A DNA stretch of 64,000 nucleotides from Pseudomonas flavescens (GTDB lineage: Bacteria > Pseudomonadota > Gammaproteobacteria > Pseudomonadales > Pseudomonadaceae). Both the position numbers and the translations under genes were made by a program. The DNA lies in the NCBI RefSeq assembly GCF_013408425.1, contig NZ_JACBYV010000001.1:2914001-2978000 (forward strand). Direction: 5' to 3'. Below, one piece after another: positions 25,467 to 42,359 of this stretch. The notes beneath the pieces are model-generated. The model was not told the origin of the DNA. It ran no database searches and saw only the letters and a program-made list of their open reading frames with translations. How positions within the stretch are numbered: the stretch's first letter is position 1; each line of letters starts with the position of its first letter.

Positions 25467-26126
25467 TTACCAACGGATACTGCGCGCCACCTCACTGCCG
25501 CCAGGCGCCAGCCACTGCGCACTGACCAGCACCGGTTGCAGTGCCGCGCCAGGCTCGACTCGCCCCGTCAACCTGGCTTGCCTGGCGAGCAGATCGGCCG
25601 CCAGGTCGGCATGATGCTGCCCAGCCAGGCTCAACTGCCCTGCCAATTTCCAGCCAGCGCTGCAATCGAGCGCCACACGCGCACGTCCCAGGTCCAGCTG
25701 CCAGGGTGCGAGCAGCGCCAGATCATCACCCTGTAAATTCCCGTTGGCTGACAGGCAGCGTGTTCCACGGCCTTTCAACTCGATGCTGCCCTGCCATTGC
25801 CCTGCCAAGCGGTAACCGGTCACGAACGTATGTGGATCGCTGGCGGGTTGCAACGAGGCATGCCAGGCCCAGGGCCAGCCGGACACCTGCAGTTGCCAGC
25901 GCTGCCCCTGATAGCCAGCGCTCGCCTGTGCGCTGAGCCGCCAGGGTTGCCAATTCCAGCGCAACGGGCCGAGATCGCCCAGGCGCTCGGCCTGCCCCTG
26001 CCAGATACTGCCGCTGATGCCTGCCAGCGGGACGGGCAGCGGCGCCAACAGCCAGCGGGCGGGCAGCTCGACCAGCAGCGTCATGACAAAGACCAGCAAT
26101 GCCCACAGCCAACGACGCCGCGTCAT
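25467..26126 (-). CDS. gspN: Type II secretion protein N
   Basis: A 219-residue inner-membrane bitopic protein: an N-terminal anchor (about 6-26) and a periplasmic domain of beta type. Weakly conserved family, but ISGSIWQGQAERL (about 37-50) and the position at the end of a gspH-I-J-L-M run identify it. It is accessory to the T2SS inner-membrane platform. The start overlaps the gspM stop (ATGA). Ten bases separate its stop from the convergent transpeptidase gene. Confidence 0.8.
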   Translation of the reverse strand: MTRRRWLWALLVFVMTLLVELPARWLLAPLPVPLAGISGSIWQGQAERLGDLGPLRWNWQPWRLSAQASAGYQGQRWQLQVSGWPWAWHASLQPASDPHTFVTGYRLAGQWQGSIELKGRGTRCLSANGNLQGDDLALLAPWQLDLGRARVALDCSAGWKLAGQLSLAGQHHADLAADLLARQARLTGRVEPGAALQPVLVSAQWLAPGGSEVARSIRW

Positions 26127-26509
26127 CGTTGCAACGCCAATTCGAAGTGCAGCGCCGAGTCGTCACGCCGCAGCCCCCAGCGCAACGGTCGTGCACCCTC
26201 TCCCTCCAACTGCTGGAGCCAGTCCTGTAGCACGCGCTCATCCTTCAACCGCCCGCGCACCAGCCACTCTTCACTGCCAGGCTCCAGCGTTTCGATGCTG
26301 ATTGCACGGGCCTTGGCGACCTGCTGCAGGTCATCGACGGTCAGTGTCCTGGCGGCCCGCAGGGCTTGGGCCGACTGGGCCAGCGCCTGCCATTGGCCAA
26401 ACGTCTGCCAGCGCTGCTGGCCTTCACGCCAGGCCAGCAGCCCCAGCAACACGGCGATGATCGCCACCGCCAGTATTCGTACGCCGCGTCCTTCGAGATT
26501 CAGCCTCAT
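26123..26509 (-). CDS. gspM: Type II secretion protein M
   Basis: A short (128-residue) GspM: one N-terminal membrane helix (about 11-25) and a ferredoxin-like periplasmic domain. Shorter than the usual ~160 residues. It pairs with GspL in the assembly platform. Identity rests on topology, the SIETLEPGSEEWLVRG-type fold region and its place between gspL and gspN, overlapping both neighbours by ATGA. Confidence 0.78.
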   Translation of the reverse strand: MRLNLEGRGVRILAVAIIAVLLGLLAWREGQQRWQTFGQWQALAQSAQALRAARTLTVDDLQQVAKARAISIETLEPGSEEWLVRGRLKDERVLQDWLQQLEGEGARPLRWGLRRDDSALHFELALQR

Positions 26510-27612
26510 GATGCGGCTCCCAGGTCGAAGGTCAGATTGAGAGCGTCGCCTGCTTGAGTCACCTGCACCGCCACGCCTATGGCGCTGGCCATCGCTTGCC
26601 AGGGTGCATCGTCGATGACCTCATGCCCCTGCAGACGCAGTGCCCAGCGCTGACCATCGAACCGCGCAGCGCTCAATTGCCAGCTCCCGTTGGCCCGCAA
26701 CCAGCCATCGAGTTCGGTCTGCAGATGTTCCAGTTGCCGCAAGCGAAGCTGTCGCTCATCCGCGCCCAGACGCTGCTGCCTCACCCGCTGCGCGGCTTCG
26801 CGCAATGATGCGACCGGCCCGACCAGCGCTTCCACCTGCGCCTGATAGACGCCCTGCTGCCGCCACTGCTGGCTGGACCACAGGCCAGCCCAGAGCACGG
26901 CCACGGCCAGACAGGCAGCAGGCAGGCGCCAGAGGCCAGGGCTCATCTGGCGGACCTGACGTTTGCCCCGGCGCCGCTCGAACAGGCTGGGCATGCCATC
27001 CAGCGCGGCGAGAGGCTCGGGCCAATCGCCCTCGACCGTGTGCATCTCGAGCTCGCGCCAAACACCGGCAGGCGTTGCCGCCTGAAGCGCGACTGGCCAG
27101 GCCAGCCAGTGCAGGCGCGCCTCGGCACTGCGACCGACGAACAGGCTCGCGCCGGCGTCCTGTCGCCAGCACCATGCCGAGCCTGGGGCCGGCACCGGTA
27201 ATAGCTGGAACTGCGCCCAGCAACGCTGCACATCGAGTTGCCACTCGGCGCACCGGGCCAGCCAGCCATCCAGCAGCGTTTGTTCGACGCAGACCAGTTG
27301 CATGGAGCCGGGCTCGCGGGCCAGGCAGCCACAGGCCAGATCCTGAGCGCTCTGCAGCAGGCGATCCTCGAGCAACAACGGCCACTCGTGACGCTTCAGC
27401 CCAGGCGGCGCGGGCACCTGAAAGTGGCTGCACAGCTCACCCGGCAGCACCAATGCCACCCGTGCGCCCGTGATCGGCGGCGGCGCACCACAACCTGACG
27501 CCTGCACGCGCCCCTGCTCTACCCGCGCCCATTGCCAGGCCTGGGCATCCGCGCCCGGGCGCAATAACAGCCAGGGCCGTGCCGCGCGGCGGCGCCAGCG
27601 CTCACGCTTCAT
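26506..27612 (-). CDS. gspL: Type II secretion protein L
   Basis: A 368-residue platform protein: an N-terminal cytoplasmic actin-like domain (1 to about 225) that binds the GspE ATPase, a single membrane helix (about 234-254, RLPAACLAVAVLWAGLW) and a periplasmic ferredoxin-like domain. LVLPGELCSHFQVPAP near residue 55 is typical. The ATG at 27612 overlaps the gspJ stop as ATGA, so I choose it over an upstream GTG at 27624. Confidence 0.85.
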   Translation of the reverse strand: MKRERWRRRAARPWLLLRPGADAQAWQWARVEQGRVQASGCGAPPPITGARVALVLPGELCSHFQVPAPPGLKRHEWPLLLEDRLLQSAQDLACGCLAREPGSMQLVCVEQTLLDGWLARCAEWQLDVQRCWAQFQLLPVPAPGSAWCWRQDAGASLFVGRSAEARLHWLAWPVALQAATPAGVWRELEMHTVEGDWPEPLAALDGMPSLFERRRGKRQVRQMSPGLWRLPAACLAVAVLWAGLWSSQQWRQQGVYQAQVEALVGPVASLREAAQRVRQQRLGADERQLRLRQLEHLQTELDGWLRANGSWQLSAARFDGQRWALRLQGHEVIDDAPWQAMASAIGVAVQVTQAGDALNLTFDLGAAS

Positions 27613-28199
27613 GAACGGCCCCACGGCAGGGCGAACGTACAGACATAGGGTGCTCCATCCCGCTGAAAAGTCAGGCGCACGCCCCTGTCGGGTCGCAACC
27701 TGTCCGTCGATGGCCAGGCCAGCCAGCGGCTGTCCTGACGAAAGGTAAAACTCACCGCTTCCACCCGATCCAGCTGCTCGCGCAGTGCCCAGACAGGTGC
27801 GGCTGCGGCGTACAGATCGCTGGAGGTGTGCAGCAGCAGACGCTGGCTGCGGCGGTCGTAATCAAGACGCTGACGCTGCAGACGGGCACCGCCCTCGGCA
27901 CTCGGCCAGGCACCCAGCGCGACCCACTGCAGTTGCAGCTCGTCCGGCCGCCAGTCCAGCCAGTTGAAGGCCAGCGGTAACCGCCGCTCATGGAGCTGAC
28001 GCAGCACGGTGGTATCGAAACGACGCTCCAGTGCCAGACAGAAATCCAGAACCGGCATCCCTGCAGAACCTTGCGCCAAGCGCTCACGAACGTTGATCCA
28101 GCCATTGACCAGGGCCGCCAGAAGCACACCCAGCAACGCCGTCAACGCCAGGGCGACCAGCAGTTCCACCAGGGTCAAACCGCGCTGCCTGCCCCTCAT
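27609..28199 (-). CDS. gspJ: Type II secretion minor pseudopilin J
   Basis: A 196-residue minor pseudopilin. The prepilin motif RQRG/LTLVELLVALALTALLG gives cleavage after Gly7 with Glu+5 present. A C-terminal domain follows. It forms the pseudopilus tip with GspI and GspK. ATGA overlaps exist with gspI upstream and gspL downstream. Confidence 0.88.
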   Translation of the reverse strand: MRGRQRGLTLVELLVALALTALLGVLLAALVNGWINVRERLAQGSAGMPVLDFCLALERRFDTTVLRQLHERRLPLAFNWLDWRPDELQLQWVALGAWPSAEGGARLQRQRLDYDRRSQRLLLHTSSDLYAAAAPVWALREQLDRVEAVSFTFRQDSRWLAWPSTDRLRPDRGVRLTFQRDGAPYVCTFALPWGRS

Positions 28200-28561
28200 G
28201 GGCGCACCAGAAACAGTTGATACAGCCCCAGCGACTCGCGGCGATCGCCATCAGCGAACAGGCTCAACTCGGCACGCCGCAGATCCCGCACACCGGTGCC
28301 CTGCATCTGCAGTTGCCAGTGACAGTTCTCGTGGCCCTGGGCAAGAACGCCAGCGAGGCTGTTCTGCGCAGGCCAGAGCTGCTCGACCGCGAAGCGTGCC
28401 TCCAGCTCACGAGCACACAACGCCCCCAGTTGATGCTGCTGGACGCTCTGCTGTACGGCCAGGCGCTGGCGCAGCACCTGGCTGGTCATGACCGCCAGCG
28501 TGGCGGCGATACCCAGGGCGACCGTCACTTCAAGCAGGGTGAAACCCCGTTGGCGCTTCAT
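28196..28561 (-). CDS. gspI: Type II secretion minor pseudopilin I
   Basis: A 121-residue minor pseudopilin with the prepilin signal KRQRG/FTLLEVTVALGIAATLA, cleavage after Gly6 and Glu+5. The ATG at 28561 overlaps the gspH stop (ATGA), which rules out the longer frame starting at 28627. It works with GspJ and GspK at the pseudopilus tip. Confidence 0.87.
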   Translation of the reverse strand: MKRQRGFTLLEVTVALGIAATLAVMTSQVLRQRLAVQQSVQQHQLGALCARELEARFAVEQLWPAQNSLAGVLAQGHENCHWQLQMQGTGVRDLRRAELSLFADGDRRESLGLYQLFLVRP

Positions 28562-29007
28562 GGCAGCGACGTCCGCTGCAAGCGACCGGCGCTGTCCCAC
28601 TGCCACCGTTCGCCTCCATCGGGCCAATGCCAGCGCAGTGCCTGCGGACGACCGACCCCGTTTGGCGTGAAGACCAGACGCGGCTCACCGGCAGCCGGCC
28701 AGTCAGGTCGCAACATTGCCGGCCACTCCCCCAATGCGACCGCCTCGACCTGCCAGTGCAGTTGATCGTTGTCGCGTACCTGGCGCACGAACTCCGGGCG
28801 CTGGCCATTCCAGCGCAGGCCATGAATCTGTCCGGCATGCAGCGCCACTGCGGCCTGAGCGCGGCTGGCCGCGGCAAGGCGCTCCAGCGCCTGCTGTGCC
28901 GGCGCCTGACCGCTGTCGAGCCAGGCCACACTGAGGCTGGTCAGCAAGCCGGCGATGAACAGCACGACCAGCAGCTCCAGCAGGCTGAAACCGCGCTGCC
29001 TGGACAC
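28558..29007 (-). CDS. gspH: Type II secretion minor pseudopilin H
   Basis: A 149-residue minor pseudopilin with SRQRG/FSLLELLVVLFIAGLLT (cleavage after Gly6, Glu+5). The start codon is GTG at 29007: the preceding in-frame codon is TAG, so no earlier start is possible, and GGGAGC lies upstream. It follows gspG across a 246-bp gap filled with two palindromic repeats, so gspHIJLMN may depend on read-through or a secondary promoter. Confidence 0.85.
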   Translation of the reverse strand: MSRQRGFSLLELLVVLFIAGLLTSLSVAWLDSGQAPAQQALERLAAASRAQAAVALHAGQIHGLRWNGQRPEFVRQVRDNDQLHWQVEAVALGEWPAMLRPDWPAAGEPRLVFTPNGVGRPQALRWHWPDGGERWQWDSAGRLQRTSLP

Positions 29008-29028
29008 CTACCAGAGCTCCCGGCCATG

Positions 29029-29210
29029 TAGGGTGGACGACGCTTTGCCCGCCCACCGCTCACGATCGCAATGGTGGACAAAAAGAGCGTTGTCCACCCA
29101 ACGTACCGGTTCATCCACAATGGCATCAGCCACGCAGGATGGACGACGCTTCACCCGCCCACCGCTCACGATCGCAACGGTGGAAAAAAACGGCGTTGTC
29201 CATCCTACGT
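29029..29210. repeat. Two palindromic repeats inside the T2SS operon
   Basis: Two copies (about 29029-29105 and 29135-29210) of an imperfect palindrome lie between gspG and gspH. Each has outer arms of the type GGGTGGACGACGCTT...AGCGTTGTCCACCC and an identical core CCCACCGCTCACGATCGCAA. They are large enough to fold into stable RNA hairpins in the polycistronic message. Confidence 0.8.
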
Positions 29211-29253
29211 AAGGGCCTTCCACCCCGCTGTCATTCCGGTTCATGGCAACGTC

Positions 29254-29688
29254 TCAAAGCTCCCAGTTGCCCAGGTCGGCATCGATGCCCTCGCCGCCCG
29301 CGATGCCATCGGCGCCCAACGAATAGACATCGACCCGACCATGCTCGCCCGGGCTGCGGTACTGGTAGGAATTGCCCCACGGGTCCTGCGGCAAGCGGCG
29401 GATGTAACCGTCAGCGCGCCAGGAGCGCGGCAGCGGTTCGACGGTGGGTTTGATCACCAGGGCCGACAGCCCCTGCTCGTTACTGGGGAAGCGCAGGTTG
29501 TCGAGGCGGTACATGTCCAGGGCCTGTTCGAAGGTCGACAGATCGGCCATCACCTTCTGCTTCATGGCCTTGTCCTGGCTACCCAGCACGCTGGGCGCAA
29601 CCACGGCGATCAACAGCCCCATGATGAAGATCACCACCATGATTTCCATCAGGGTGAAGCCCCGTTGAGTGAAACGATTGCTGCACAT
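29254..29688 (-). CDS. gspG: Type II secretion major pseudopilin G
   Basis: A 144-residue major pseudopilin. The prepilin signal is FTQRG/FTLMEIMVVIFIMGLL (Glu+5 present). The C-terminal calcium-loop region includes RLPQDPWGNSYQY and DVYSLGADG, both diagnostic of GspG. The ATG at 29688 follows AGAGGAAAG; a TTG at 29706 that overlaps the gspF stop is less likely. It builds the pseudopilus piston of the secretion system. Confidence 0.93.
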   Translation of the reverse strand: MCSNRFTQRGFTLMEIMVVIFIMGLLIAVVAPSVLGSQDKAMKQKVMADLSTFEQALDMYRLDNLRFPSNEQGLSALVIKPTVEPLPRSWRADGYIRRLPQDPWGNSYQYRSPGEHGRVDVYSLGADGIAGGEGIDADLGNWEL

Positions 29689-29702
29689 GATGGCTTTCCT
29701 CT

Positions 29703-30905
29703 TCAAAGTGTCAGGCCCTGATTGAGCTGCATGATCGGCAGCAGCACGGCCATTACGATGAACAGCACCACGCCGCCCATCACCAGAATCATCAGGGGTT
29801 CGAATAGCGCCATGGCGGTGTCCACCTGGCGGGCGAAGCCACGCTCCTGGTTGTCCGCCACGCGTTCGAGCATGTCCGGCAGGGTGCCGCTGGCTTCGCC
29901 ACTGGCGACCATGTTCAGCAGCAACGGTGGAAAATGGCCGCTGGCCTCCAGAGCGCGGTGCAAGCTGACGCCGCCCTTCACCTCGCTGCCGACCCGCTCC
30001 AGGGCCAGGCGGATGCGCCGGTTGTTGACCGTGGCGGTCGCCACTTGCAGGGCTTCGAGCAATGGCACGCCACTGCCGGCGAGGATCGCCAGGCTGCGCG
30101 ACAGCCGGGCACTCTCCAGGACCTGCAGGAGCACGCCGACCTGGGGCAGGCGCAGCAGCAGGTCATCGCGGCGCAGGCACCAGTGCGGCTTGCGCAGCAG
30201 CAGCTTGCCGACCAATGCCGCCAGCAGTGCCGCTCCCAGCAGCCAGGGGCCGAGCAGCACCAGCGTATTGCTGATGCCGATCAGCAGCGTGGTGATCCAC
30301 GGCAGGCTCTGCCCGGCATGGGTGAACTGTTCGGTGAGTTTGGGCACCACGAAGGTCATCAGGCCGATCACCACGGCCAGGGAAACGCCCATCAGCACGG
30401 CCGGATATATCAGCGCGGTGCGGGCCTTGTGCTGTTGCCGCTGGACCTGTTCCAGGTGCTCGGCCAGGCGCTCGAGCACCTGGGCCAGGCGACCGGAGCG
30501 CTCGCCCGCCTCGACCAGCGCGCAATACAGCGTCGAGAACACGCCGCCCTGACGCGCCAGGCTGCGGGCCAGGCCAACGCCCTCGGCGAGGGAGCCGCGC
30601 ACCGCCACCAGCAGGCTGCGCAGCGCTGGCTGGACCAGCTGCCGCTCCAGAGTACCCAGTGCGTCGACCAGCGGAATGCCTGCGCCGGTGAGGGTCGCCA
30701 GTTGCCGGGTCAGCTCGCACAGTTGCGCACGGCTGACCCGCTGGCGGCGCGGCTGCCGGCTTTGCGGGTCGTGACGATGCAACTCGCGGGCGAACAAGCC
30801 GCTCTCGCGCAGCAGCTGCCGGGCGTGGCGCTCGCTGTCCGCCTGCAGACTGGCCTTGTGCGGCTTGCCAGCCAGGTCGACGGCCTGATAGCGATAGGTC
30901 GGCAT
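29703..30905 (-). CDS. gspF: Type II secretion inner-membrane platform protein F
   Basis: A 400-residue polytopic protein with two GspF domains (about 70-190 and 270-395) and three membrane segments, at about 170-190, 210-240 and 370-390. The N-terminal segment YRYQAVDLAGKPHKASLQA is typical. Family motifs GIPLVDALGTLERQ and GVPLLEALQVA are present. It couples the GspE motor to pseudopilus assembly. Two bases separate it from gspE. Confidence 0.92.
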   Translation of the reverse strand: MPTYRYQAVDLAGKPHKASLQADSERHARQLLRESGLFARELHRHDPQSRQPRRQRVSRAQLCELTRQLATLTGAGIPLVDALGTLERQLVQPALRSLLVAVRGSLAEGVGLARSLARQGGVFSTLYCALVEAGERSGRLAQVLERLAEHLEQVQRQQHKARTALIYPAVLMGVSLAVVIGLMTFVVPKLTEQFTHAGQSLPWITTLLIGISNTLVLLGPWLLGAALLAALVGKLLLRKPHWCLRRDDLLLRLPQVGVLLQVLESARLSRSLAILAGSGVPLLEALQVATATVNNRRIRLALERVGSEVKGGVSLHRALEASGHFPPLLLNMVASGEASGTLPDMLERVADNQERGFARQVDTAMALFEPLMILVMGGVVLFIVMAVLLPIMQLNQGLTL

Positions 30906-30907
30906 AC

Positions 30908-32362
30908 TCAGCCCTGCACCGCACGCAGCACTTCAGCGAGGCTGGTGTCGCCGCGTGCCAGGCAGTCGCAGGCCATGGCCGACAGGCTCTGCCGACGATC
31001 CTCGAGGTAGGCCTGCATGCTCACCTCGCTGGCGCCGCTGTACAGCAGCGCGATCAGCCCGGCATCCAGCTCGATGAATTCGTAGAGCCCCAGGCGGCCC
31101 TGATAACCGCAACCCTGGCACTCTTCGCAGCCGACCGGATGAAAGCTGTACTCGAGGCCGGCCAGCTCCGGCATCAACTGCCGTTCGGCGGCCTGCAAGG
31201 GTCTACGCTCGGCGCAACTGCACAGGCGGCGCACCAGGCGCTGGGCGAGCACGCCACGCAGGCAGGAGGCGATCAGGAAGGGCTCGATACCCATGTCGCG
31301 CAGCCGCGTCACGGCGCCCACTGCGCTGTTGGTATGCAGCGTCGACAACACCAGATGCCCGGTGAGACTGGCCTGCACGGCAATCTGCGCGGTTTCCCGA
31401 TCACGGATTTCGCCAAGCATGATCACGTCCGGGTCCTGACGCAGGATCGCCCGCAGGCCACTGGCGAATGTCAGCCCGGCACGCGGGTTGATGGCGGTCT
31501 GGCCGATACCGGTGATGGCGTATTCCACCGGGTCTTCGACGGTGAGGATGTTGCGGCTGCCGTCATTCAGGCTGTTGAGGCTGGCGTAGAGGGTGGTGGT
31601 CTTGCCCGAGCCGGTCGGGCCGGTGCTCAGCACGATGCCGTTGGGGCGGCCCAGACAGGCACGCAAGCCCTGCTCCACGGCAGGCGGCATTCCCAGGTTG
31701 GGCAGCGCCAGCAGGCTGGCCTGCTTGTCCAACACACGCATCACCACCCGCTCGCCATGAATGCCCGGCAGCGTGGAAACCCGCACGTCGACCTCGCGGC
31801 CGGCGGCCCGCAGGGTGATGCGGCCATCCTGGGGCTGGCGTTTTTCGGCGATGTCCAGCCGTGCCATGACCTTGATCCGCGACACCAGCATGGCTGACAA
31901 CGCCCGTGGCGGGCGCAGAACCTCGCGCAGGTGGCCGTCGATGCGCAGGCGCACCACCAGGCTCTGCTCGAAGGTCTCGATATGGATATCCGAGGCCTGC
32001 AACTGCAGCGCCTGGGCGAACAGGCCATTGATCAGGCGGATCACCGGCGCCTCGTCGTCGCTCTCGAGCAGGTCCTCGATGCGTGGCATGTCATTCATCA
32101 GGCTGTCGAGATCGACCTGTTCGCCAATGCCCTCGATCAGCGCCGCATTCGCCCCCTCGCCGGCCTGGTACAGCTGGCCCAGGCGCCGTTCGAACTCGGC
32201 CCGCGGCAAGTGACACACCGCGCCGGGCGCACCTTCGACACGCAACAGTTCCTGCAACTGGTCGCTGTCGGCGTCATCGCACAGCCACAGGCTCCAGCTA
32301 CCCTCGCTGGGCACCCAGGCCAGGCCGGCCTGACGGGCCAGACGGTAGGGCAACAGGCTCAT
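30908..32362 (-). CDS. gspE: Type II secretion ATPase E
   Basis: A 484-residue hexameric traffic ATPase. Features are Walker A GPTGSGKTTTLYASL (about 250), the Asp box, Walker B-like VIMLGEIRDRETA (about 315), the His box TGHLVLSTLHTNSAVG and a cysteine-rich zinc module ending in CEECQGCGYQGRLG (about 410-425). The N1E domain binds GspL. The ATG at 32362 shares one base with the gspD stop. Confidence 0.94.
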   Translation of the reverse strand: MSLLPYRLARQAGLAWVPSEGSWSLWLCDDADSDQLQELLRVEGAPGAVCHLPRAEFERRLGQLYQAGEGANAALIEGIGEQVDLDSLMNDMPRIEDLLESDDEAPVIRLINGLFAQALQLQASDIHIETFEQSLVVRLRIDGHLREVLRPPRALSAMLVSRIKVMARLDIAEKRQPQDGRITLRAAGREVDVRVSTLPGIHGERVVMRVLDKQASLLALPNLGMPPAVEQGLRACLGRPNGIVLSTGPTGSGKTTTLYASLNSLNDGSRNILTVEDPVEYAITGIGQTAINPRAGLTFASGLRAILRQDPDVIMLGEIRDRETAQIAVQASLTGHLVLSTLHTNSAVGAVTRLRDMGIEPFLIASCLRGVLAQRLVRRLCSCAERRPLQAAERQLMPELAGLEYSFHPVGCEECQGCGYQGRLGLYEFIELDAGLIALLYSGASEVSMQAYLEDRRQSLSAMACDCLARGDTSLAEVLRAVQG

Positions 32363-34314: not shown

Positions 34315-34317
34315 CTC

Positions 34318-34743
34318 TTATCCTTGCCGCTTGAAGCCGGTCACGGCAGGCCGTGGCGGCCAGGGCAGGCGCTCGCGCCGCCCCTGGTTATCGAAAATAA
34401 GCCCTGTTTCGTCGATGTCCTGCAGCACGATGCCGGGCCCCAGGCGTTGCCCACGGCTGAAGCTGCGGACCTGCTCGCCGTAGCGCAACACCACCACGGT
34501 GGCGCTCAGCGGCACCGCGCGCAGCCCGCCCAGGTACTGGATCGGCAGGCGCGTGAGCGGCAGTGCGTCGCCATCGGCATTCAGTTGCCAGTGGCCCACC
34601 AGCAGGCCAGGGGGCGCTGCCACATCGACGGCAGCGGCACGGGCCGGTTGCGGTTCACGGCTGAGCTGCAATACGCACTGCGCCGCCAGCCAGGCACCGA
34701 GGGTCAGCCAAAAGCCGCTCCACAGTCGCTGCGCGCTGATCAA
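34318..34743 (-). CDS. gspC: Type II secretion protein C, short form
   Basis: A 141-residue bitopic protein: a membrane anchor (about 6-24) and a homology region (about 60-125; IQYLGGLRAVPLSATVVVLR, FSRGQRLGPGIVLQDID) that contacts the secretin N0 domain. It lacks the C-terminal PDZ or coiled-coil domain of typical 270-residue GspC proteins. The start is TTG at 34743, overlapping the phosphatase stop as TTGA with AGAGG six bases upstream; no internal methionine is available. Confidence 0.82.
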   Translation of the reverse strand: MISAQRLWSGFWLTLGAWLAAQCVLQLSREPQPARAAAVDVAAPPGLLVGHWQLNADGDALPLTRLPIQYLGGLRAVPLSATVVVLRYGEQVRSFSRGQRLGPGIVLQDIDETGLIFDNQGRRERLPWPPRPAVTGFKRQG

Positions 34744-36371
34744 CTGACGCCTCTGGGATGCCAGCCGGGATGGCCCTGTACGTAACGCACGCTGGGCAGA
34801 TGCAGAGCAGGTAGCTGCCAGTCGCTTGGCTGCCTGGTCAGCCAGGCTTCCACACGCTGCCAGAGGGGTTCGCCTGGGCTGGCGTCATCGGTCAGTGACA
34901 CGCTGCGGCACAGGCCGTCGAGTGGAGCCAGACCGGAAACCCGCTTGCCGGTCGGGCTGTAGTTGACCTGCCAGGCCTGCCCCTGCCAGCGCGGCAGATC
35001 CTGGCTGTTGTCGAGCAACAGGGGATCGCCGAACAGTTGATCGGCTGCGTTTTCCAGCACGCTTTCGAGCGGCTTTACCGGCGCCTCCACGACGGGGGCC
35101 GGATAGCCGCCAGTCAGGCTGATCAGTTGTTCTCGGGTAATCGCCTGGCCAGCGGCTACCGGGCTGTCGTAACGCAGGCCAGGCAGCAACACCTGCATCT
35201 GGCCGTCATCGGAGAGCGCCTGATGCAGCAGGCGGTCCCAGCTGCCACCCCGGGTGTCGCGACGCCACAGCGCCTGCGGCGCCTTGGCCAGGGGCTGATC
35301 GAGCCAGGCGGCGTGAGGCGCTCGCTGGCCCTGCAACTGCGTCCGCAGGCGCGCCGCATGCGCCTGACCTGCCGGGGACAGCAGATGTTCGAACGCTGGG
35401 TGAAAGCGCGCGACGAAGGTCCATTGCCCCGCCTGCCGCTGGCAAGCGATATGAAAGGCACCGCTGGCCCGGCAGCCGCCCAGCACCACCGGCACCCGTC
35501 TGCCGCTGCTCTGCAGCACCTCGATCGGCGCCGGCCAGAAGTCCTGACCACGGGCACACAACAGCAGATCGGCATCGCTCAGTCGTTCGGCCAGCCACAG
35601 GCCGGGACCGGTCCCCACATCGGCCAGGGCGATGACCAGATCGGCCTGGGCACGTGCTTCCCTGAAGGCCGGTAGCAGCGATTGGTACCACTGTTTCAGT
35701 GAGGCATTCTGATCCCCGGCATAAGGGTCGGTAATCCCCACTACCGCGATCCGCACCCCGGCGCGCCGGATGATGGTGAAAGGCTCGCTACCCAGCGCCT
35801 CGGCGTCTGCAAGGCCGGCACCGACGACGGGCCGAGCGAAATGCCGATAAAGGCCGGCACAGCGTTGTGGCCACAGCACGCGTTCATCGCTGCTGACCCG
35901 CACCTCGCTGCCCAGCAACTGGCTACCCTGCGCGCCACTCTCTCCCTGGGTCAGATAGGCCAGCCCACTGCCGTTCCAGCCCTGGCCGTTCTCCAGGGTC
36001 AGGCAGCGCTCGGCGCCGTGGCGCTGACGCAGCTCTTCCAGCAAGGCACCCAGTACGGCGTAACCACCGGTACTGACGCCTTCGGCCAGGCGCGCATCGA
36101 GCAGCGGATTGAGTTCGCTGCGGGCCTGGTGGGCATTGCTGCCACTGAGCCAGGGCGCTCGCCCAAGGTGGGAAACCGGCCCCAGTCGAGTGGCCGGCAC
36201 CACCGGTTGACCCGGCTGGCGGGCATCCAGGGTATCGGCGAAATACAGCAATTCCAGTTCGGATTGGCCATTCTGCCGCGGGGTTGCGAAGCCCGAGCAG
36301 GCGCTGAGCATCGGGGCCATTGCACCGATGCCCATCCAGCTCATCACTTCACGTCTGCCGATGTTCGTCAT
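34740..36371 (-). CDS. Tat-exported 5'-nucleotidase/SoxB-like phosphatase, likely T2SS substrate
   Basis: A 543-residue exported metallophosphoesterase-type protein. The start at 36371 gives MTNIGRREVMSWMGIGAMAP with a twin arginine (6-7) and a lipobox LSAC (Cys25); an in-frame ATG at 36398 would add nine residues. The body resembles UshA/SoxB-type 5'-nucleotidases: LLYFADTLDARQPG replaces the usual metal-binding TND.H start, VVGITDPYAGDQN, and a C-terminal substrate domain with SLTGGYPAPVV and VNYSPTGKRVSGL. Several classical metal ligands are not evident, so activity is uncertain. It is the first gene of the gsp operon (TTGA overlap with gspC) and lies behind a Pho-box array. P. putida UxpA is a plausible counterpart (recollection, unverified). 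Confidence 0.75.
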   Translation of the reverse strand: MTNIGRREVMSWMGIGAMAPMLSACSGFATPRQNGQSELELLYFADTLDARQPGQPVVPATRLGPVSHLGRAPWLSGSNAHQARSELNPLLDARLAEGVSTGGYAVLGALLEELRQRHGAERCLTLENGQGWNGSGLAYLTQGESGAQGSQLLGSEVRVSSDERVLWPQRCAGLYRHFARPVVGAGLADAEALGSEPFTIIRRAGVRIAVVGITDPYAGDQNASLKQWYQSLLPAFREARAQADLVIALADVGTGPGLWLAERLSDADLLLCARGQDFWPAPIEVLQSSGRRVPVVLGGCRASGAFHIACQRQAGQWTFVARFHPAFEHLLSPAGQAHAARLRTQLQGQRAPHAAWLDQPLAKAPQALWRRDTRGGSWDRLLHQALSDDGQMQVLLPGLRYDSPVAAGQAITREQLISLTGGYPAPVVEAPVKPLESVLENAADQLFGDPLLLDNSQDLPRWQGQAWQVNYSPTGKRVSGLAPLDGLCRSVSLTDDASPGEPLWQRVEAWLTRQPSDWQLPALHLPSVRYVQGHPGWHPRGVS

Positions 36372-36415
36372 CGCCCCGCTCGCCTCATCTTTATGCATTG
36401 TCGGGGCGGGATACT

Positions 36416-36455
36416 GGGCAGCTTATGTGACAGTTTAATGGCGGTTATTCGACAG
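36416..36455 (-). promoter_or_regulatory. Candidate Pho box for the phosphatase-gsp operon
   Basis: Read on the minus strand, 7-mers CTGTCGA, CCGCCAT, CTGTCAC and GCTGCCC follow one another at an exact 11-bp period, separated by ATAA, TAAA and ATAA. Two match the PhoB half-site CTGTCAT at five or six positions. They lie 45-85 bp upstream of the operon's first start codon. Confidence 0.68.
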
Positions 36456-36502
36456 CCATACCTCGGTCATCAATCGAAAAAATCAGATAAATCAGAAAGG
36501 TA

Positions 36503-36553
36503 GCGTCACAAAGCTTTCAATAGCCGTTAACAGAACTGCCAGAAAATCATCAC
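36503..36553 (+). promoter_or_regulatory. Candidate Pho box for the PhoX-type phosphatase gene
   Basis: On the plus strand, 7-mers GCGTCAC, CTTTCAA, CGTTAAC, CTGCCAG and TCATCAC recur at an 11-bp period with A-rich 4-bp linkers, as in PhoB operators. A possible -10 (TCTAAA, 36562-36567) follows about 10-20 bp downstream, where PhoB-dependent promoters lack a -35. Confidence 0.62.
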
Positions 36554-36613
36554 ATTCGGTCTCTAAAGTCCCGGTTTCCTCAAGCCGCTTCAACAGAAAA
36601 AGGACATGACCTG

Positions 36614-38656
36614 ATGAGTCGAGATACCGGCGATAACCTGGACCGCAACCCCAGTGGCAACCTGCCGATGGCATCGGTTCTGGATTCGTACCTGAGCCGC
36701 CGCAGCGTGATGCGCGGTGGCCTGGGCGCCGCGATCGCCATGATCGCGGGCACCGGCCTCACCGGCTGTTTCGACAGCGGCGGTTCCAGCAATGACAGCC
36801 CTTCCACCGAGCCACCCGCCGAGCCGAAACTGGCTCTCGGCTTCCAGTCGATTGCCGGCTCGCGCACCGATGCCTGCGTGGTAGCTGCCGGTTACAGCGC
36901 CTATGTGCTGGCCCCTTGGGGAACGCCGTTCAACAGCGCCGGTGGCACCTGGAAAGCGGATGGCAGCAACACCTCCACCGAGCAGGAAAACTCGGCAGGC
37001 ATGCACCACGACGGCATGCACTTCTTCCCCATCAACGGCAGCTCCGATGATGGCCTGATGGCGATCAACTACGAATACATCGACGAAGACGCCCTGCACC
37101 CGAACGGCCAGACCACGGTCAACGGCCGGCGCCCAGCCGAAGAAGTGCGCAAGGAGATCAACGCCCATGGCGCGGGTGTGATCCGCATCAGCAAGGTCAG
37201 CGGCCGCTGGCAGGTCGTCGATAACGATCCGCTGAACCGTCGCTTCACCACCGCCACCGTGATGGATATTTCCGGCCCGCTGCGCGGCACCGACCACGTC
37301 AAGACCAAGTTCTCGATCAACGGCACCGAAACCCGCGGCACCAACAACAACTGCGGCAACGGCTACACCCCGTGGGGCACGTATCTGACCTGCGAAGAGA
37401 ACTGGCCGTCGATCTTCATCAACACCTCCCCCCGTCCTGCCGATCAGTCACGTATCGGTGTCGGTACCAGCACTGGCCGCTATGGCTGGGAAACCGCTGC
37501 CGGGGATGCCTCGGAACAGAACGACGAATTCACCCGTTTCAACATCACCCCGAGCGGTGCGTCGGCGACCGACGACTACCGCAACGAAGCCAGCACCTAT
37601 GGCTACATCGTCGAGATCGATCCGTACGATTCCAGCACCCGTGCCGTGAAGCGTACCGCCCTGGGCCGTATTCGCCACGAAGGCTGCTGGCCGGCGCTGC
37701 CGGTAGTCGGCAAGCCGGTGGTGTTCTACACCGGTGATGACTCGAACAATGAGTACCTGTACAAGTTCGTCTCCGACGCGGTGTGGGACGCTGCCGATGC
37801 CAACCCGAGCGACCGCCTGGCCACCGGTGCCAAGTACATGGACAGCGGCACCCTGTACGTCGCCCGCTTCGATGCCGACGGCACCGGTGCCTGGATCCCT
37901 CTGGTAGCGGCCACCCAGACCACCGACGGCAGCACCCTGGGCACCAAGTTCACCGACCTGCCGGGGATCATCCTCAACACCCGCGGCGCGGCCGATGCCG
38001 TCGGCGCGACGCCGATGGACCGCCCGGAGTGGACCGCCGTCAACCCGCTCAATGGCGACGTTTACCTGACCCTGACCAACAACAGCGCGCGCACTGCGGC
38101 CGCGGTCGACGCTGCCAACCCACGCGGCCCGAACCGTCACGGTCACGTGATCCGCTGGCATGACAGCGACGATCAGCTCAGCTTTGCCTGGGATATCTTC
38201 GTGTTCGGCGCCAACGCCTCGGGCACCCCCGACATCAACCGCTCCGGCCTGACCGAACTCAACCAGTTCGCCAGCCCGGATGGCATGAGCTTCGACAGCC
38301 GCGGGATTCTCTGGATCCAGACCGACAACGGCGAATCGAGCGTGACCAGCTACACCAACGACCAGATGCTGGCGGTAATCCCCACCAACCTGGTCGATGC
38401 CAGCGGCAAGCAAGTCCCGGTCAATGCTCAGAATCAGGTGGATCTGCGCCGTTTCTTCGTTGGCCCGAACGGCAGCGAAGTGACCGGCATCGCCTTCACG
38501 CCGGACAACAAGACCATCTTCGTCAACATCCAGCACCCGGGTAACTGGCCATCCACCGACGTCGCCACGGACGAAACGCCAGCCGGCACCAGCGTCCGCC
38601 CACGCGCCTCCACGGTGGTGATCCAGCGCAACGACGGTGGCGAAATCGGCGTCTGA
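36614..38656 (+). CDS. PhoX-type alkaline phosphatase (DUF839), Tat-exported
   Basis: A 680-residue PhoX-family enzyme, known in other bacteria as a calcium/iron phosphomonoesterase. The signal has SRRSVMRGG (Arg29-Arg30) for Tat export and a lipobox LTGC (Cys52), followed by a Ser/Asp/Pro-rich linker to about residue 75. The propeller carries family segments: ENSAGMHHDGMHFFP, NYEYIDEDALHPNG, TPWGTYLTCEENW, GRIRHEGCWPAL, FYTGDDSNNEYLYKF and ASPDGMSFDSRGILWIQTDNGE. It is divergent from the gsp operon over shared Pho-box DNA. The likely route is Tat to the periplasm, then the T2SS outward, as described for UxpB in P. putida. A repeat array follows. Confidence 0.88.
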   Translation: MSRDTGDNLDRNPSGNLPMASVLDSYLSRRSVMRGGLGAAIAMIAGTGLTGCFDSGGSSNDSPSTEPPAEPKLALGFQSIAGSRTDACVVAAGYSAYVLAPWGTPFNSAGGTWKADGSNTSTEQENSAGMHHDGMHFFPINGSSDDGLMAINYEYIDEDALHPNGQTTVNGRRPAEEVRKEINAHGAGVIRISKVSGRWQVVDNDPLNRRFTTATVMDISGPLRGTDHVKTKFSINGTETRGTNNNCGNGYTPWGTYLTCEENWPSIFINTSPRPADQSRIGVGTSTGRYGWETAAGDASEQNDEFTRFNITPSGASATDDYRNEASTYGYIVEIDPYDSSTRAVKRTALGRIRHEGCWPALPVVGKPVVFYTGDDSNNEYLYKFVSDAVWDAADANPSDRLATGAKYMDSGTLYVARFDADGTGAWIPLVAATQTTDGSTLGTKFTDLPGIILNTRGAADAVGATPMDRPEWTAVNPLNGDVYLTLTNNSARTAAAVDAANPRGPNRHGHVIRWHDSDDQLSFAWDIFVFGANASGTPDINRSGLTELNQFASPDGMSFDSRGILWIQTDNGESSVTSYTNDQMLAVIPTNLVDASGKQVPVNAQNQVDLRRFFVGPNGSEVTGIAFTPDNKTIFVNIQHPGNWPSTDVATDETPAGTSVRPRASTVVIQRNDGGEIGV

Positions 38657-39971
38657 CCGGCCCACGCGGCACGGGGTCATCTCGTGCCGTATCTCTTAGC
38701 CTGGATCGAGCACCGCGACATCCAGGCCCTTCTTTCCGTGTATCGCCACGCTCGACACCGGCTACCAAAGCACCCGGTGCGTAGCCTGCGATTGCTGGCA
38801 ACGGCATGCCATCCGCTGGGTGAGCACGACCGCATCGCCCGCAAGCGGGCTCCTACGGATTGGATCACCACGTATCCTCAGAGCTGGCCACCAGCGCATT
38901 CGCGCCGGGGGCGACGCTCCTACGAATGCAGTGCCGGACGACCATCTTGCAGGCACACCGATCCTGTAGGAGCCGGCTTGCCGGCGATCCGCGGACGTAC
39001 CGTCAATTCATCTGAATACCCGGTGCGCAGGCCGCGATCAATGACAACGGCATGCCATCCGCTGGATGAACACGACCGCATCGCCCGCAAGCGGGCTCCT
39101 ACGAATGCAGTGCCGGAAGACCAGCTTGCAGGCACACCGATCCTGTAGGAGCCGGCTTGCCGGCGATCCGCGGACGTACCGTCAATTCATCTGAATACCC
39201 GGTGCGCAGGCCGCGATCAATGACAACGGCATGCCATCCGCTGGATGAGCAAGACCGCATCGCCCGCAAGCGGGCTCCTACGGATTAGATCACCACGTAT
39301 CGTCAGAGCTGGCTACCAGCGCATTCGCGCCGGGGGCGACGCTCCTACGGATGCAGTGCCGGACGACCAGCTTGCAGGCACACCGATCCTGTAGGAGCCG
39401 GCTTGCCGGCGATCCGCGGACGTACCGTCAATTCATCTGAATACCCGGTGCGCAGGCCGCGATCAATGGCAACGGCATGCCATCCGCTGGATGAGCAAGA
39501 TCGCATCGCCCGCAAGCGGGCTCCTACGGGTTAGATCACCACGTATCGTCAGAGCTGGCTAACAGCGCATTCGCGCCGGGGGCGACGCTCCTACGGATGC
39601 AGTGCCGGACGCCCAGCTTGCAGGCACACCGATCCTGTAGGAGCCAGCTTGCCGGCGATCCGCGGACGTACCGTCAATTCATCTGAATACCCGGTGCGCA
39701 GGCCGCGATCAATGGCAACGGCATGCCATCCGCTGGATGAACACGACCGCATCGCCCGCAAGCGGGCTCCTACGAATGCAGTGCCGGGCGCCCAGCTTGC
39801 AGGCACACCGATCTTGTAGGAGCCGGCTTGCCGGCGATCCGCGGACGTGCCGTCAATTCATCTGAATACCCGGTGCGCAGGCCGCGATCGATGGCAACGG
39901 CATCCCCATCCGCAGGATGAGCAAGATCGCATCGCCCGCAAGCGGGCTCCTGCACGGCTAGGCGACTTGCG
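38657..39971. repeat. 1.3-kb array of REP-containing composite units
   Basis: There is no gene between the PhoX gene and gspK. The conserved element GTAGGAGCCGGCTTGCCGGC starts at 38966, 39145, 39391, 39637 (one base change) and 39816, spacings 179, 246, 246, 179. The shorter unit has a second REP (CGCCCGCAAGCGGGCTCCTA); the longer unit adds a third (CGCCGGGGGCGACGCTCCTA) at about 38908, 39330 and 39573. Units are joined by near-identical linkers containing TCAATTCATCTGAATACCCG. Open frames across it are repeats, not genes. Confidence 0.9.
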
Positions 39972-40943
39972 CTACAAGGCAAATGGCAAGGGTTCGCGGC
40001 TGATCACCTGCACCCGCTGCACCGGCACCTGCGCATGCCAGCGCACCACACCCTGAGCCTGCACCTGAAACTGGCTGCTGATCAGCCGGTCATCCTGCTC
40101 GAACTCTAGCTGCAGCATGAAATCACCGCTGTTGAGCAGCAAGCCCTCACTGAGGCGCTCGAACGCCAGGTCGTCCACGGCTCCCAATGCCTCGCGCAAA
40201 GCGGCCACATCGGGGTAACCGTTGGCTGGTCGGCCGGTGATGATGCGGGTCAGCAGCGAGCGTGCGAACTCACCCTCGTAGAGCGCATCGAGCAGGGGCA
40301 AATGCTCCAGGCTCAGGGCATTGGCATTCAAGCGCCAGCCCGATGTCTGCGGCAGCGCACAGAGTTGCGGATAACGCAGCTGTCGGCCAGGTTGCGGTGT
40401 GAGCAGCAGGTTCAGTTCGCTCATGTCCACCATGGGCTGATTGGCAGCGAGCCGCGGCGGCGTCTGGCGCAGGTACTGATCGCTTTCGGCACCGTGCAGG
40501 CGGCTCTGGCCGTCGCTGTCGATCCAGTCAGCCAGGGCATGCACCAGTTGTTCGGCGGCCAGGTCGTCACCGAGCAGGTATTGCAGCTGACGCTCGGCCC
40601 GTTCGGCCTCCTGCCCGGCCAGCGCATTGACGTTGAAGCAGCTGTGCAGATCACGAATGCGCAAGGTCGCCGCACCGCCGGCGAAGTCGTAACGCAACGG
40701 CTGCCCACGCAGGGCTTGCCAGAACAACGGGCTCTGCCGCCAGGCAGGATCCCTGAGTGCCTGTTCGGCGAACGCCAGGCCGGCGACCTCCATGGCTCGC
40801 GCCTGGATTCGCTGCTGTTGCAGGCGCACCGCATCGACCTGTTGCCGCCCTTGCTGCACCATCCACGCCAGCCCACCGGCGAGCATGGCCAAGGCCACCA
40901 GCACCATCAATAACGCTGCGCCGTGCTGCCGCCTGCCACCCAT
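39972..40943 (-). CDS. gspK: Type II secretion minor pseudopilin K
   Basis: A 323-residue tip pseudopilin. The prepilin-like N-terminus is RRQHG/AALLMVLVALAMLAG, lacking Glu+5 as is normal for GspK. The large periplasmic domain has the family segments DWIDSDGQSRLHGAESDQY (about 140-158) and CFNVNAL. It lies outside the main operon, beyond the PhoX gene and the repeat array, on the same strand as gspC-N. It is divergent from tatABC over 149 bp, so it has its own promoter. Confidence 0.9.
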   Translation of the reverse strand: MGGRRQHGAALLMVLVALAMLAGGLAWMVQQGRQQVDAVRLQQQRIQARAMEVAGLAFAEQALRDPAWRQSPLFWQALRGQPLRYDFAGGAATLRIRDLHSCFNVNALAGQEAERAERQLQYLLGDDLAAEQLVHALADWIDSDGQSRLHGAESDQYLRQTPPRLAANQPMVDMSELNLLLTPQPGRQLRYPQLCALPQTSGWRLNANALSLEHLPLLDALYEGEFARSLLTRIITGRPANGYPDVAALREALGAVDDLAFERLSEGLLLNSGDFMLQLEFEQDDRLISSQFQVQAQGVVRWHAQVPVQRVQVISREPLPFAL

Positions 40944-41014
40944 CGCTCACCCCTCGAACCAAGAGCCGACAGTCAACAGGCTGAATGTTGCAGAGAGGTG
41001 GCAGCCACCTTTTT

Positions 41015-41054
41015 TCGTCATCGACGCGTCACCGTAGCGTCACAAAGCCCAGGC
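41015..41054 (+). promoter_or_regulatory. Candidate Pho box upstream of tatABC
   Basis: 7-mers TCGTCAT, GCGTCAC, GCGTCAC and CCCAGGC occur at an 11-bp period (linkers CGAC, CGTA, AAAG), 39-78 bp before tatA. The last full unit plus linker, GCGTCACAAAG, is identical to the first unit of the PhoX-gene box at 36503. Confidence 0.65.
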
Positions 41055-41092
41055 AGATTAGCCCTTCAATTTCATAGCGTTGGAGAGTTTTC

Positions 41093-41326
41093 ATGGGCGG
41101 CATCGGTATCTGGCAACTGGTCATCGTGCTGTTGATCGTGTTTCTGTTGTTCGGCAGCAAACGCCTCAAGACGCTGGGTGGCGATCTCGGTGAAACCATC
41201 CAGGGTTTCCGCAAATCCATGGCCAGCAACAGCGAAGCGGACGAGTCGCCGGCACAGGTCCAGCAGCAGGCACCGCTGTCGGGAACCGCTCAACAGTCCC
41301 ACACCCACACGGATCGCCAGGCCTGA
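41093..41326 (+). CDS. tatA: Twin-arginine translocase subunit TatA
   Basis: A 77-residue Tat pore-forming subunit: a short N-terminus, one membrane helix (about 6-21), the [20 protein letters not shown] hinge and amphipathic helix, then a hydrophilic tail ending in a His/Thr-rich stretch. Preceded by GGAGAG. The stop overlaps the tatB start by one base. Being next to gspK and behind a Pho-like box, it probably belongs to a dedicated translocase serving the two phosphatases. Confidence 0.93.
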
Positions 41327-41613
41327 TGTTCGAAATAGGCTTCACCGAACTGCTGCTGGTTAGCGTGGTGGCACTGCTGGTGCTCGGCCCGGAACGCCTG
41401 CCGGTCGCAGCCCGCACCCTGGGGCGCGGCCTTGGCCAGGCAAAACGGGCGATGGGCATGCTGCGTGATCAGGTAGAACGTGAACTCGATGCCCAGGCCG
41501 TGAGCAAGGAGCTGGACGCCGCGCCGTTGCGGCAACTGGAGCAGGAACTGCGTCGCGGCATCAACCTGCAGGAGCCGCAACCAGCCGTAGGCAAATCGGA
41601 GGGCAGCGCATGA
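41326..41613 (+). CDS. tatB: Twin-arginine translocase subunit TatB
   Basis: A 95-residue Tat[27 protein letters not shown] is the canonical membrane helix and Gly-Pro hinge, followed by an amphipathic helix (RTLGRGLGQAKRAM). Shorter than housekeeping TatB proteins (about 140-170 residues). With TatC it forms the signal-peptide receptor. It overlaps tatA by one base and tatC by four (ATGA). Confidence 0.92.
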   Translation: MFEIGFTELLLVSVVALLVLGPERLPVAARTLGRGLGQAKRAMGMLRDQVERELDAQAVSKELDAAPLRQLEQELRRGINLQEPQPAVGKSEGSA

Positions 41614-42359
41614 GCAGCATGCCATTGACCGCTCACCTAGGCGAACTGCGCAAGCGGCTGGTGCGCTGCCTGCTGGTGATTCTGCTGGCCTTCCTCGGCC
41701 TGTTCCCCTTCGCGCAGACCCTTTACACACTGATATCCGAACCGCTGCGCCGCTACCTGCCCGAAGGCGCGAGCATGATCGCAACCAGCGTGACGTCGCC
41801 TTTCCTGGCGCCATTCAAGCTGACCATGATGGTCGCCGTGTTCCTCTCCATGCCGGTACTGCTGCATCAGGCGTGGGGGTTCGTGGCACCGGGGCTGTAT
41901 CGCCGCGAGCGGCGCATCGCAGTGCCCCTGCTGGTCTCGAGCATTCTGTTGTTCTATGCAGGCATGGCCTTCGCGTTCTTCGCGGTGTTCCCGATGATGT
42001 TCGGCTTCTTCGCCAGCGTCACGCCGGATGGCGTGGAGATGATGACCGACATCGCCCTGTATCTGGATTTCATCCTCGCCCTGTTTCTGGCATTCGGGCT
42101 GGCCTTCGAAATTCCCGTGGCAACCTTCATCATCGTCTGGGCCGGGCTGACGGATGTCGACACGCTGCGCCGTAGCCGACCCTACGTGATCGTCGGCTGC
42201 TTCGTGGTCGGCATGCTGCTGACCCCGCCAGACGTATTCTCGCAAACCATGCTGGCGGTGCCGATGTGGCTACTGTTCGAAGTCGGCCTGATCGCCTGCG
42301 GCAGCATCCAGCGTCGGCCGGAGCGGGAACCTGCGCAGGAATTGGTCGCGACGGAGTAG
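41610..42359 (+). CDS. tatC: Twin-arginine translocase subunit TatC
   Basis: A 249-residue six-helix receptor. Conserved features: LTAHLGELRKRL at the N-terminus, the first periplasmic loop and SPFLAPFKLTMMVAVFLSMPVLLHQAWGFVAPGL, the Glu in LAFGLAFEIPV (about 170) and the late LTPPDVFSQTMLA signature. The ATGA overlap with tatB shows a single tatABC operon. It would bind the twin-arginine signals of the neighbouring phosphatases. Confidence 0.95.
   Translation: MSSMPLTAHLGELRKRLVRCLLVILLAFLGLFPFAQTLYTLISEPLRRYLPEGASMIATSVTSPFLAPFKLTMMVAVFLSMPVLLHQAWGFVAPGLYRRERRIAVPLLVSSILLFYAGMAFAFFAVFPMMFGFFASVTPDGVEMMTDIALYLDFILALFLAFGLAFEIPVATFIIVWAGLTDVDTLRRSRPYVIVGCFVVGMLLTPPDVFSQTMLAVPMWLLFEVGLIACGSIQRRPEREPAQELVATE

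What the first reader, a model, noticed from the sequence alone, without database searches (positions are those of the whole stretch)
25467..42359. Integrated phosphate-starvation secretion module: T2SS, two phosphatases and a private Tat translocase
A complete gspC-N set, gspK, a 5'-nucleotidase-like and a PhoX-type phosphatase and tatABC occupy one 17-kb block. The first gene of the gsp operon is itself a phosphatase with a twin-arginine signal, translationally overlapped with gspC. Pseudomonas Xcp/Uxp and Hxc systems secreting phosphatases are known, so this is a relative rather than an unknown class, but the private Tat and the physical coupling of Tat, T2SS and substrates are unusual. Inference: the Tat here folds and exports precisely the proteins this T2SS secretes.
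Basis: partly seen in the sequence, partly recalled or inferred. Interest (0 to 1): 0.72.

Follow-up and report, generated by a model that had tools for sequence, protein, structure and literature searches.

The report
Phosphate-starvation phosphatase secretion locus
This stretch of a Pseudomonas genome is an already described kind of phosphate-starvation kit that carries a lipid-tagged phosphatase out of the cell, but one of its two supposed phosphatases has lost the metal-binding site of its relatives and is probably something else.

Summary
The genes are there: gspC-N, a displaced gspK, uxpA, phoX and tatABC. The locus matches the Xcp/Uxp/Tat module known from P. putida, so coupling of Tat, T2SS and PhoX is not new. 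The layout is seen in 50 of 54 Pseudomonas-side loci; the other four are cut by contig ends.

Two corrections. UxpA is kin to SoxB, but 136 aligned rows all carry the same replacements in five of five metal-ligand motifs, so it is probably not a 5'-nucleotidase-type phosphatase. The Tat is a paralogue of single origin, but exclusive use is not supported: related modules occur where only one TatC was found.

Leads. PhoX has a lipobox and a G/S/D-rich stretch like GspN-dependent lipoproteins of Acinetobacter; in Halomonadaceae gspN and PhoX's lipobox go together (17 both, 4 neither, 0 mixed), but as one event. The Tat paralogue's twin-arginine-contact Glu, fixed in 86 of 86 other TatC rows, is D, K or Q in 32 of 51; the window's copy keeps Glu.

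The parts
25467..26126 (-). gspN, 219 aa; candidate lipoprotein-handling subunit
   Evidence: no direct Pfam/NCBIfam hit; homologues 89% identical pass PF01203; only copy found in genome
26123..26509 (-). gspM (XcpZ type)
   Evidence: TIGR04412 107.7 bits, cut-off 60
26506..27624 (-). gspL
   Evidence: TIGR01709 54 bits, below cut-off 65
27609..28199 (-). gspJ
   Evidence: TIGR01711 26 bits, below cut-off; position in operon
28196..28627 (-). gspI (start probably internal, about 28561, by eye)
   Evidence: TIGR01707 27 bits, below cut-off
28558..29007 (-). gspH
   Evidence: TIGR01708 91 bits, cut-off 80
29254..29706 (-). gspG, major pseudopilin
   Evidence: TIGR01710 206 bits
29703..30905 (-). 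gspF
   Evidence: TIGR02120 503 bits
30908..32362 (-). gspE ATPase
   Evidence: TIGR02533 616 bits (cut-off 630); PF00437 456 bits
32362..34314 (-). gspD secretin
   Evidence: TIGR02517 604 bits; PF00263
34318..34743 (-). gspC, short form (141 aa); 4-nt overlap with uxpA
   Evidence: PF11356 20.2 bits, below cut-off; overlap and lengths
34740..36398 (-). uxpA: Tat-type (GRREVM) lipoprotein (LSAC), SoxB-related, metal-ligand motifs replaced; first gene of the gsp operon
   Evidence: many relatives are named 'lipoprotein UxpA' by NCBI
36427..36455 (-). Pho-box-like triple 11-bp repeat upstream of uxpA
   Evidence: best site beats all 40 shuffles in 62 of 68 uxpA-phoX intergenic regions
36614..38656 (+). 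phoX (uxpB): Tat-type (SRRSVM) lipoprotein (LTGC) with G/S/D-rich stretch after Cys
   Evidence: PF05787 455 bits; PDB PhoX 3zwu/4amf 370 bits; lipobox
38836..39953 (.). REP-like repeat array between phoX and gspK
   Evidence: 11 matches of a 21-mer with up to 2 mismatches here; 0.00 expected in the whole window; TRF units of 179 and 246 bp
39972..40943 (-). gspK, displaced from the operon
   Evidence: NF037980 175 bits, cut-off 130
41016..41043 (+). Pho-box-like repeat upstream of tatA; weak evidence
   Evidence: only 5 of 52 gspK-tatA regions beat all 40 shuffles
41093..41326 (+). tatA paralogue
   Evidence: TIGR01411, PF02416
41326..41613 (+). tatB paralogue
   Evidence: TIGR01410 73 bits, cut-off 56.5
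41610..42359 (+). tatC paralogue (TatC2)
   Evidence: PF00902 231 bits; own clade 100/99

Best explanation
The locus is an orthologue of the P. putida Xcp/Uxp/Tat module. Under low phosphate PhoB turns on the operons (reported in P. putida; inferred here). PhoX folds in the cytoplasm, crosses the inner membrane by Tat (the linked paralogue as Pi-inducible extra capacity, the housekeeping Tat as an alternative), is lipidated at its lipobox cysteine, avoids the Lol route through its G/S/D-rich N-terminus, is taken up by GspN and leaves through GspD to the cell surface or medium. UxpA takes the same Tat and lipidation steps but is probably not a metallophosphatase and more likely a cell-associated lipoprotein working with the T2SS. 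Shown by sequence: gene content, RR and lipobox, conserved gene coupling, UxpA's replaced motifs, single origin of TatC2. Inferred: GspN dependence, UxpA's role, export routes and regulation in this species.
For: Layout shared with P. putida-group loci including WCS358. RR plus lipobox (by regular expression) in 70 of 71 UxpA and 66 of 70 PhoX rows. Residues P2'-P8' after Cys, G/S/N/D pooled: PhoX mean 6.05 of 7 (77 of 78 rows have 5 or more), UxpA 2.38 (3 of 87); GspN-dependent lipoproteins of A. baumannii are G/S- or N/D-rich there (PMC12802150: abstract, passages, part 1 of section 10, discussion). GspN and PhoX lipobox: 17 with both, 4 with neither, 0 mixed among scorable Halomonadaceae loci; all four gspN-less loci have gspM followed by a convergent gene, and no GspN hit in their genomes. 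A GspN profile made from Pseudomonas alone found gspN in 4 of 7 halomonad and 6 of 6 other stretches. UxpA motifs replaced in 136 rows. gspC hit beside uxpA in 63 of 64, 7 of 7 and 25 of 25 loci (the one miss is cut); UxpA persists in 5 halomonad loci with no PhoX in the fetched stretch. Pho box: 62 of 68. In BIRD-1 PhoX was in the exoproteome and UxpA was called intracellular (PMC5082522, passages).
Against: The four gspN-less loci form one clade (100/100), so the co-loss is one event. The six control genomes had given sequences to the profile, so their hits prove little. UxpA has a lipobox too and might be surface cargo. TatC2's recognition site varies in relatives, which hints at specificity beyond extra capacity. 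The module is patchy: 1 of 15 sampled genomes of the window's own genus group has a UxpA hit. No structure could be predicted. Regulation in this species is untested; the tatA Pho box is weak.
Confidence: 0.7

Rival explanations
1. One reading: this Tat is private and exports exactly the two phosphatases that this T2SS secretes.
For: In 119 sampled Pseudomonadaceae genomes (116 with a TatC hit) the only one with two is the window's own; 20 of 20 isolate genomes chosen because they carry the module have at least two TatC, one chosen MAG has one; TatC2 is one clade, linked to the module.
Against: Related modules with RR-lipobox UxpA (7 of 7) and PhoX (6 of 6 in the fetched stretch) occur with a single detected TatC in 7 Pseudomonadaceae, and 9 of 9 halomonads searched have one TatC. 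UxpA's metal-ligand motifs are replaced. Recalled: Putker 2013 found both Tat systems export UxpB.
Confidence: 0.1
2. UxpA is an active enzyme with a rebuilt site: the former metal pocket now binds another metal or ligand and does new chemistry on phosphate compounds.
For: The replaced positions are invariant rather than drifting (L57, Q139, S170, D260, R283, Q285), beside invariant D55, E136, N137, E172, D286. Strong conservation of a pocket suggests a function there.
Against: No His is left at the aligned ligand positions (ligand identities recalled); no row with an intermediate site among the 136 aligned. The one relevant paper found for UxpA reports no activity in the passages seen.
Confidence: 0.3
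3. UxpA is itself a surface-displayed T2SS cargo, like PhoX.
For: Lipobox and RR in 70 of 71 rows; same operon as the T2SS.
Against: Mostly lacks the G/S/N/D-rich stretch; keeps its lipobox in the 3 gspN-less loci where it could be read, while PhoX lost its own; called intracellular in BIRD-1 (PMC5082522). The sorting rule comes from Acinetobacter.
Confidence: 0.3

Closest known systems
P. putida Xcp / UxpA-UxpB / tat module (Putker et al. 2013, not held here; cited through PMC12700990, PMC4509608, PMC5082522)
   Same: Same gene set and layout (L026 is WCS358; L027, L044, L049 and L073 are named P. putida); PhoX-type UxpB, Tat signal, Pi and PhoBR control reported for P. putida.
   Different: UxpA about 70% and PhoX about 80% identical. 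TatC2 has Asp at the twin-arginine contact in L027, L044, L049 and L073, Glu in the window and in WCS358. Other differences not tested.
Acinetobacter baumannii GspN-dependent lipoprotein secretion, with Klebsiella PulA/PulN (PMC12802150)
   Same: gspN in the operon; lipobox cargo with a G/S or N/D-rich stretch after Cys.
   Different: Cargo here has a Tat-type signal; the words UxpB and PhoX do not occur in that paper's main text; GspN dependence not tested here.
Caulobacter ElpS with T2SS (PMC2996285, abstract and passages)
   Same: Phosphate-starvation lipoprotein encoded beside a T2SS.
   Different: ElpS reaches the surface without the T2SS, which is needed for its release; no functional domain beyond the signal was reported; not compared by sequence.
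SoxB / 5'-nucleotidase metallophosphoesterases (for UxpA)
   Same: Aligns over residues 48-488 to SoxB 2wdc/4uwq, 86-87 bits.
   Different: Ligand motifs replaced: DLH to DTL, GGD to NGQ, SHWE to SSDE, SHNG to ADVG, GHTH to ARGQ.

Membership tests
P. putida-type Xcp/Uxp/Tat module | uxpA-gspC-N operon with divergent phoX, gspK and tatABC beside it | tested here: met
   window and 50 of 54 Pseudomonas-side loci; 4 cut by contig ends
P. putida-type Xcp/Uxp/Tat module | PhoX with Tat motif and lipobox | tested here: met
   SRRSVM and LTGC
P. putida-type Xcp/Uxp/Tat module | second tat cluster in the genome | tested here: met
   2 TatC
P. putida-type Xcp/Uxp/Tat module | phosphate/PhoB control | tested here: inconclusive
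   Conserved Pho-box-like site before uxpA; counted over the window alone such sites are no more than chance
P. putida-type Xcp/Uxp/Tat module | Xcp-dependent secretion of PhoX | not testable with these tools
   needs mutants
PhoX phosphatases | PhoX profile | tested here: met
   PF05787 455 bits; PDB PhoX 370 bits; active-site ligands not mapped one by one
SoxB/5'-nucleotidase metallophosphoesterases (UxpA) | conserved Asp/His/Asn dimetal ligands | tested here: not met
   5 of 5 motifs changed (the first Asp, D55, is kept), the same in every one of 136 rows with a letter there; which residues are ligands is recalled
GspN-dependent lipoprotein T2SS | gspN present | tested here: met
GspN-dependent lipoprotein T2SS | cargo with G/S- or N/D-rich P2'-P8' | tested here: met
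   PhoX FDSGGSS
GspN-dependent lipoprotein T2SS | cargo export lost without gspN | not testable with these tools
   only an evolutionary co-loss, one event

The most novel reading that the evidence does not exclude
The module has built two dedicated parts out of housekeeping ones. UxpA is a former SoxB-type enzyme turned into a T2SS-resident lipoprotein that hands Tat-exported, lipidated PhoX to GspN/GspC. The linked Tat is a re-tuned translocase whose binding site for the first signal-peptide arginine has shifted from Glu to Asp, Lys or Gln in many lineages, so that it reads its few clients in a non-standard way.
Probability: 0.2. Interest if true: 0.75.

Novelty: new member of a known kind. 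Interest (0 to 1): 0.45.

Why it matters
The locus joins three open questions in one unit: how a T2SS handles lipoproteins (GspN), what second Tat systems are for, and what UxpA does. Each can be tested by single gene removals in P. putida KT2440. A natural TatC with Lys or Gln at the E15 position would be a direct probe of twin-arginine recognition.

Tried and rejected
Rejected: halomonad origin of the Tat paralogue. But TatC2 nests among Pseudomonadaceae TatC. Rejected: second TatC as universal to the module. Not tested: UxpA against ElpS by sequence. Led nowhere: Rfam, 0 hits; Pho-box scan of the window alone, 8 sites against 11.5 expected; paper search for two Tat systems with Xcp, 0 papers at 5 of 6 terms.

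Limits. The 54 Pseudomonas-side loci include two records labelled Pantoea (L050, L052). The 30 genomes were chosen by me out of 64 loci. Searches cover 119 and 151 sampled genomes; of 28 UxpA hits I fetched 25 and left out three weak or split ones (G219, G321, G334). Left out of the GspN count: L201 and L205 (cut), L204, L206, L207, L208 (no PhoX in the fetched stretch). The 136 UxpA rows hold duplicates of some species. The 86 other TatC rows come from best-scoring, capped locus lists; only identical rows were dropped, and changes at the E15 position were not counted as events on a tree. One low PhoX row of 78 is probably L068, which has no real lipobox; not checked. The UxpA N-terminus of L074 could not be read.
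Full report
What is there. The window lies in a complete 5.95-Mb genome. Its UxpA is 97% identical to that of Pseudomonas flavescens LMG 18387 and 91-95% to P. dryadis, argentinensis and seleniipraecipitans. On the minus strand run uxpA, gspC, D, E, F, G, H, I, J, L, M, N; on the plus strand phoX and, further on, tatABC, with gspK (minus) between phoX and tatA. Family searches agree with these names, several small subunits only below cut-off. One gspN is found in the genome, two TatC, two PhoX and six secretin hits.

How widespread. A scan of named genomes gave 64 uxpA loci. Of 54 on the Pseudomonas side (two labelled Pantoea), 50 show tatC, gspK, phoX, uxpA and gspC in the window's layout; L031, L033, L061 and L071 are cut by contig ends, and L018 is cut on the gsp side. 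They include P. capeferrum WCS358 and several P. putida. In the ten halomonad loci gspK lies in the usual place inside the operon. The module is patchy: in 119 sampled Pseudomonadaceae genomes UxpA is found in 8, and in 1 of 15 of the window's own genus group.

What is already known. Putker et al. 2013 could not be read here. From recall, it reported Pi-induced xcp genes, UxpB with Tat motif and lipobox, a tat cluster next to uxpB and xcp, and export of UxpB by either Tat system. Passages of held papers support the core: UxpB (PP_1043) as a characterised extracellular phosphatase secreted via Tat (PMC12700990); the WCS358 T2SS as like an Xcp system secreting UxpB at low phosphate (PMC4509608); PhoBR-dependent PhoX, UxpA and Gsp proteins in BIRD-1 (PMC5082522); two or three tatC loci in P. 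putida genomes (PMC3827258). The finding as framed is therefore a known kind of system in a further species.

Is the Tat private? TatC2 forms one clade (100/99) among Pseudomonadaceae TatC, on a long stem (66 of 147 extracted rows; several outgroup rows have long branches). In the 119 genomes 116 have a TatC hit and only the window's has two; the other 7 UxpA carriers show one. Of 30 genomes chosen from the named loci, 20 of 20 isolates have two or more TatC, the one MAG has one, and 9 of 9 halomonads have one, which lies beside the module in 7. So a dedicated copy exists, but the module can be kept without one. Exclusive use is not supported.

A hint of specialisation. Of 92 TatC columns fixed in at least 95% of 86 other TatC rows, four differ in 30% or more of 51 TatC2 rows. 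Three are conservative (Y to F, L to I, L to M). The fourth is the glutamate that in E. coli TatC (E15) contacts the first arginine of the signal peptide through a water (PMC13323110, passages): E 19, D 26, K 5, Q 1 in TatC2, E in 86 of 86 others. E103, the partner of the second arginine, is invariant in all 137. The K rows are P. syringae GAW0119, two P. viridiflava, ICMP 561 and P. folii; Q is a MAG. Against a strong reading: related rows share changes and events were not counted; in E. coli an E15G change only slowed growth in SDS (PMC3712464, passages); neither the motif nor its site on TatC is strictly needed there (PMC5539426, passages). The window's TatC2 keeps E.

UxpA is not an ordinary phosphatase. 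It has no Pfam hit and aligns to SoxB. Mapping through that alignment, the metal-ligand motifs (which residues are ligands is recalled) read DTL for DLH, NGQ for GGD, SSDE for SHWE, ADVG for SHNG and ARGQ for GHTH; the first Asp is kept. In 136 aligned rows, some of them duplicates, these replacements are invariant apart from a gap in one row; position 171 inside SSDE is D in 130, N in 4, E in 2. The pocket is thus conserved but not as a dimetal site. A search for UxpA found one relevant paper, which calls it a putative phosphatase. UxpA overlaps gspC's start in 67 of 70 loci and stays next to gspC where phoX was not found nearby (5 halomonad loci). I take it as more likely a T2SS-associated lipoprotein than a cargo enzyme, without proof; all loci were found through UxpA, so the converse (this T2SS without UxpA) was not tested.

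PhoX, GspN and lipids. RR and lipobox occur in 66 of 70 PhoX and 70 of 71 UxpA rows (the window's own copy and the genome's unlinked PhoX, which has no lipobox, were left out). PhoX carries a G/S/N/D-rich P2'-P8' like the GspN-dependent lipoproteins of A. baumannii; UxpA mostly does not (PMC12802150). The four PhoX without lipobox are halomonad. In each, gspM is followed by a convergent gene, the same by eye, and no GspN hit exists in the genome. Seventeen halomonad loci with lipobox PhoX all have gspN. The profile made from Pseudomonas GspN alone already found gspN in the four lipobox halomonads tried and not in the three without. The six positive genomes are no independent control, since they fed the profile. 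The four gspN-less loci form one clade, so this is one event that fits the GspN model, not a statistic.

Regulation. The uxpA-phoX intergenic region holds a triple 11-bp repeat of Pho-box type; the best site beats all 40 shuffles in 62 of 68 loci. Before tatA the signal is weak, 5 of 52. Shuffles kept base composition only.

Verdict. Observation confirmed; interpretation partly supported; kind already described. The extra leads (UxpA's replaced site, TatC2's recognition residue, GspN and the lipobox) lift the interest to about 0.45.

Noticed in passing
window 38836-39953 and 50152-50724: Dense REP-like arrays (a 21-mer and a partly inverted variant): 11 hits between phoX and gspK, 7 at regular 92-bp spacing at 50.2-50.7 kb.
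   Followed up: partly
L055, L056, L058, L059, L060 (TatC of the module): Natural TatC with Lys instead of the otherwise conserved Glu at the twin-arginine contact; L062 has Gln.
   Followed up: partly
G154 and G011: Three TatC genes in one genome; contexts not examined.
   Followed up: no
L207 802-2031: Halomonadaceae relative without PhoX nearby has, upstream of uxpA, a lipoprotein-like ORF with FDSGSSGSSGSS after its lipobox Cys: possible alternative cargo of this T2SS.
   Followed up: no
G023 contig C16: A second phoX about 5 kb from the only tatC found, while the T2SS module lies on another contig.
   Followed up: no
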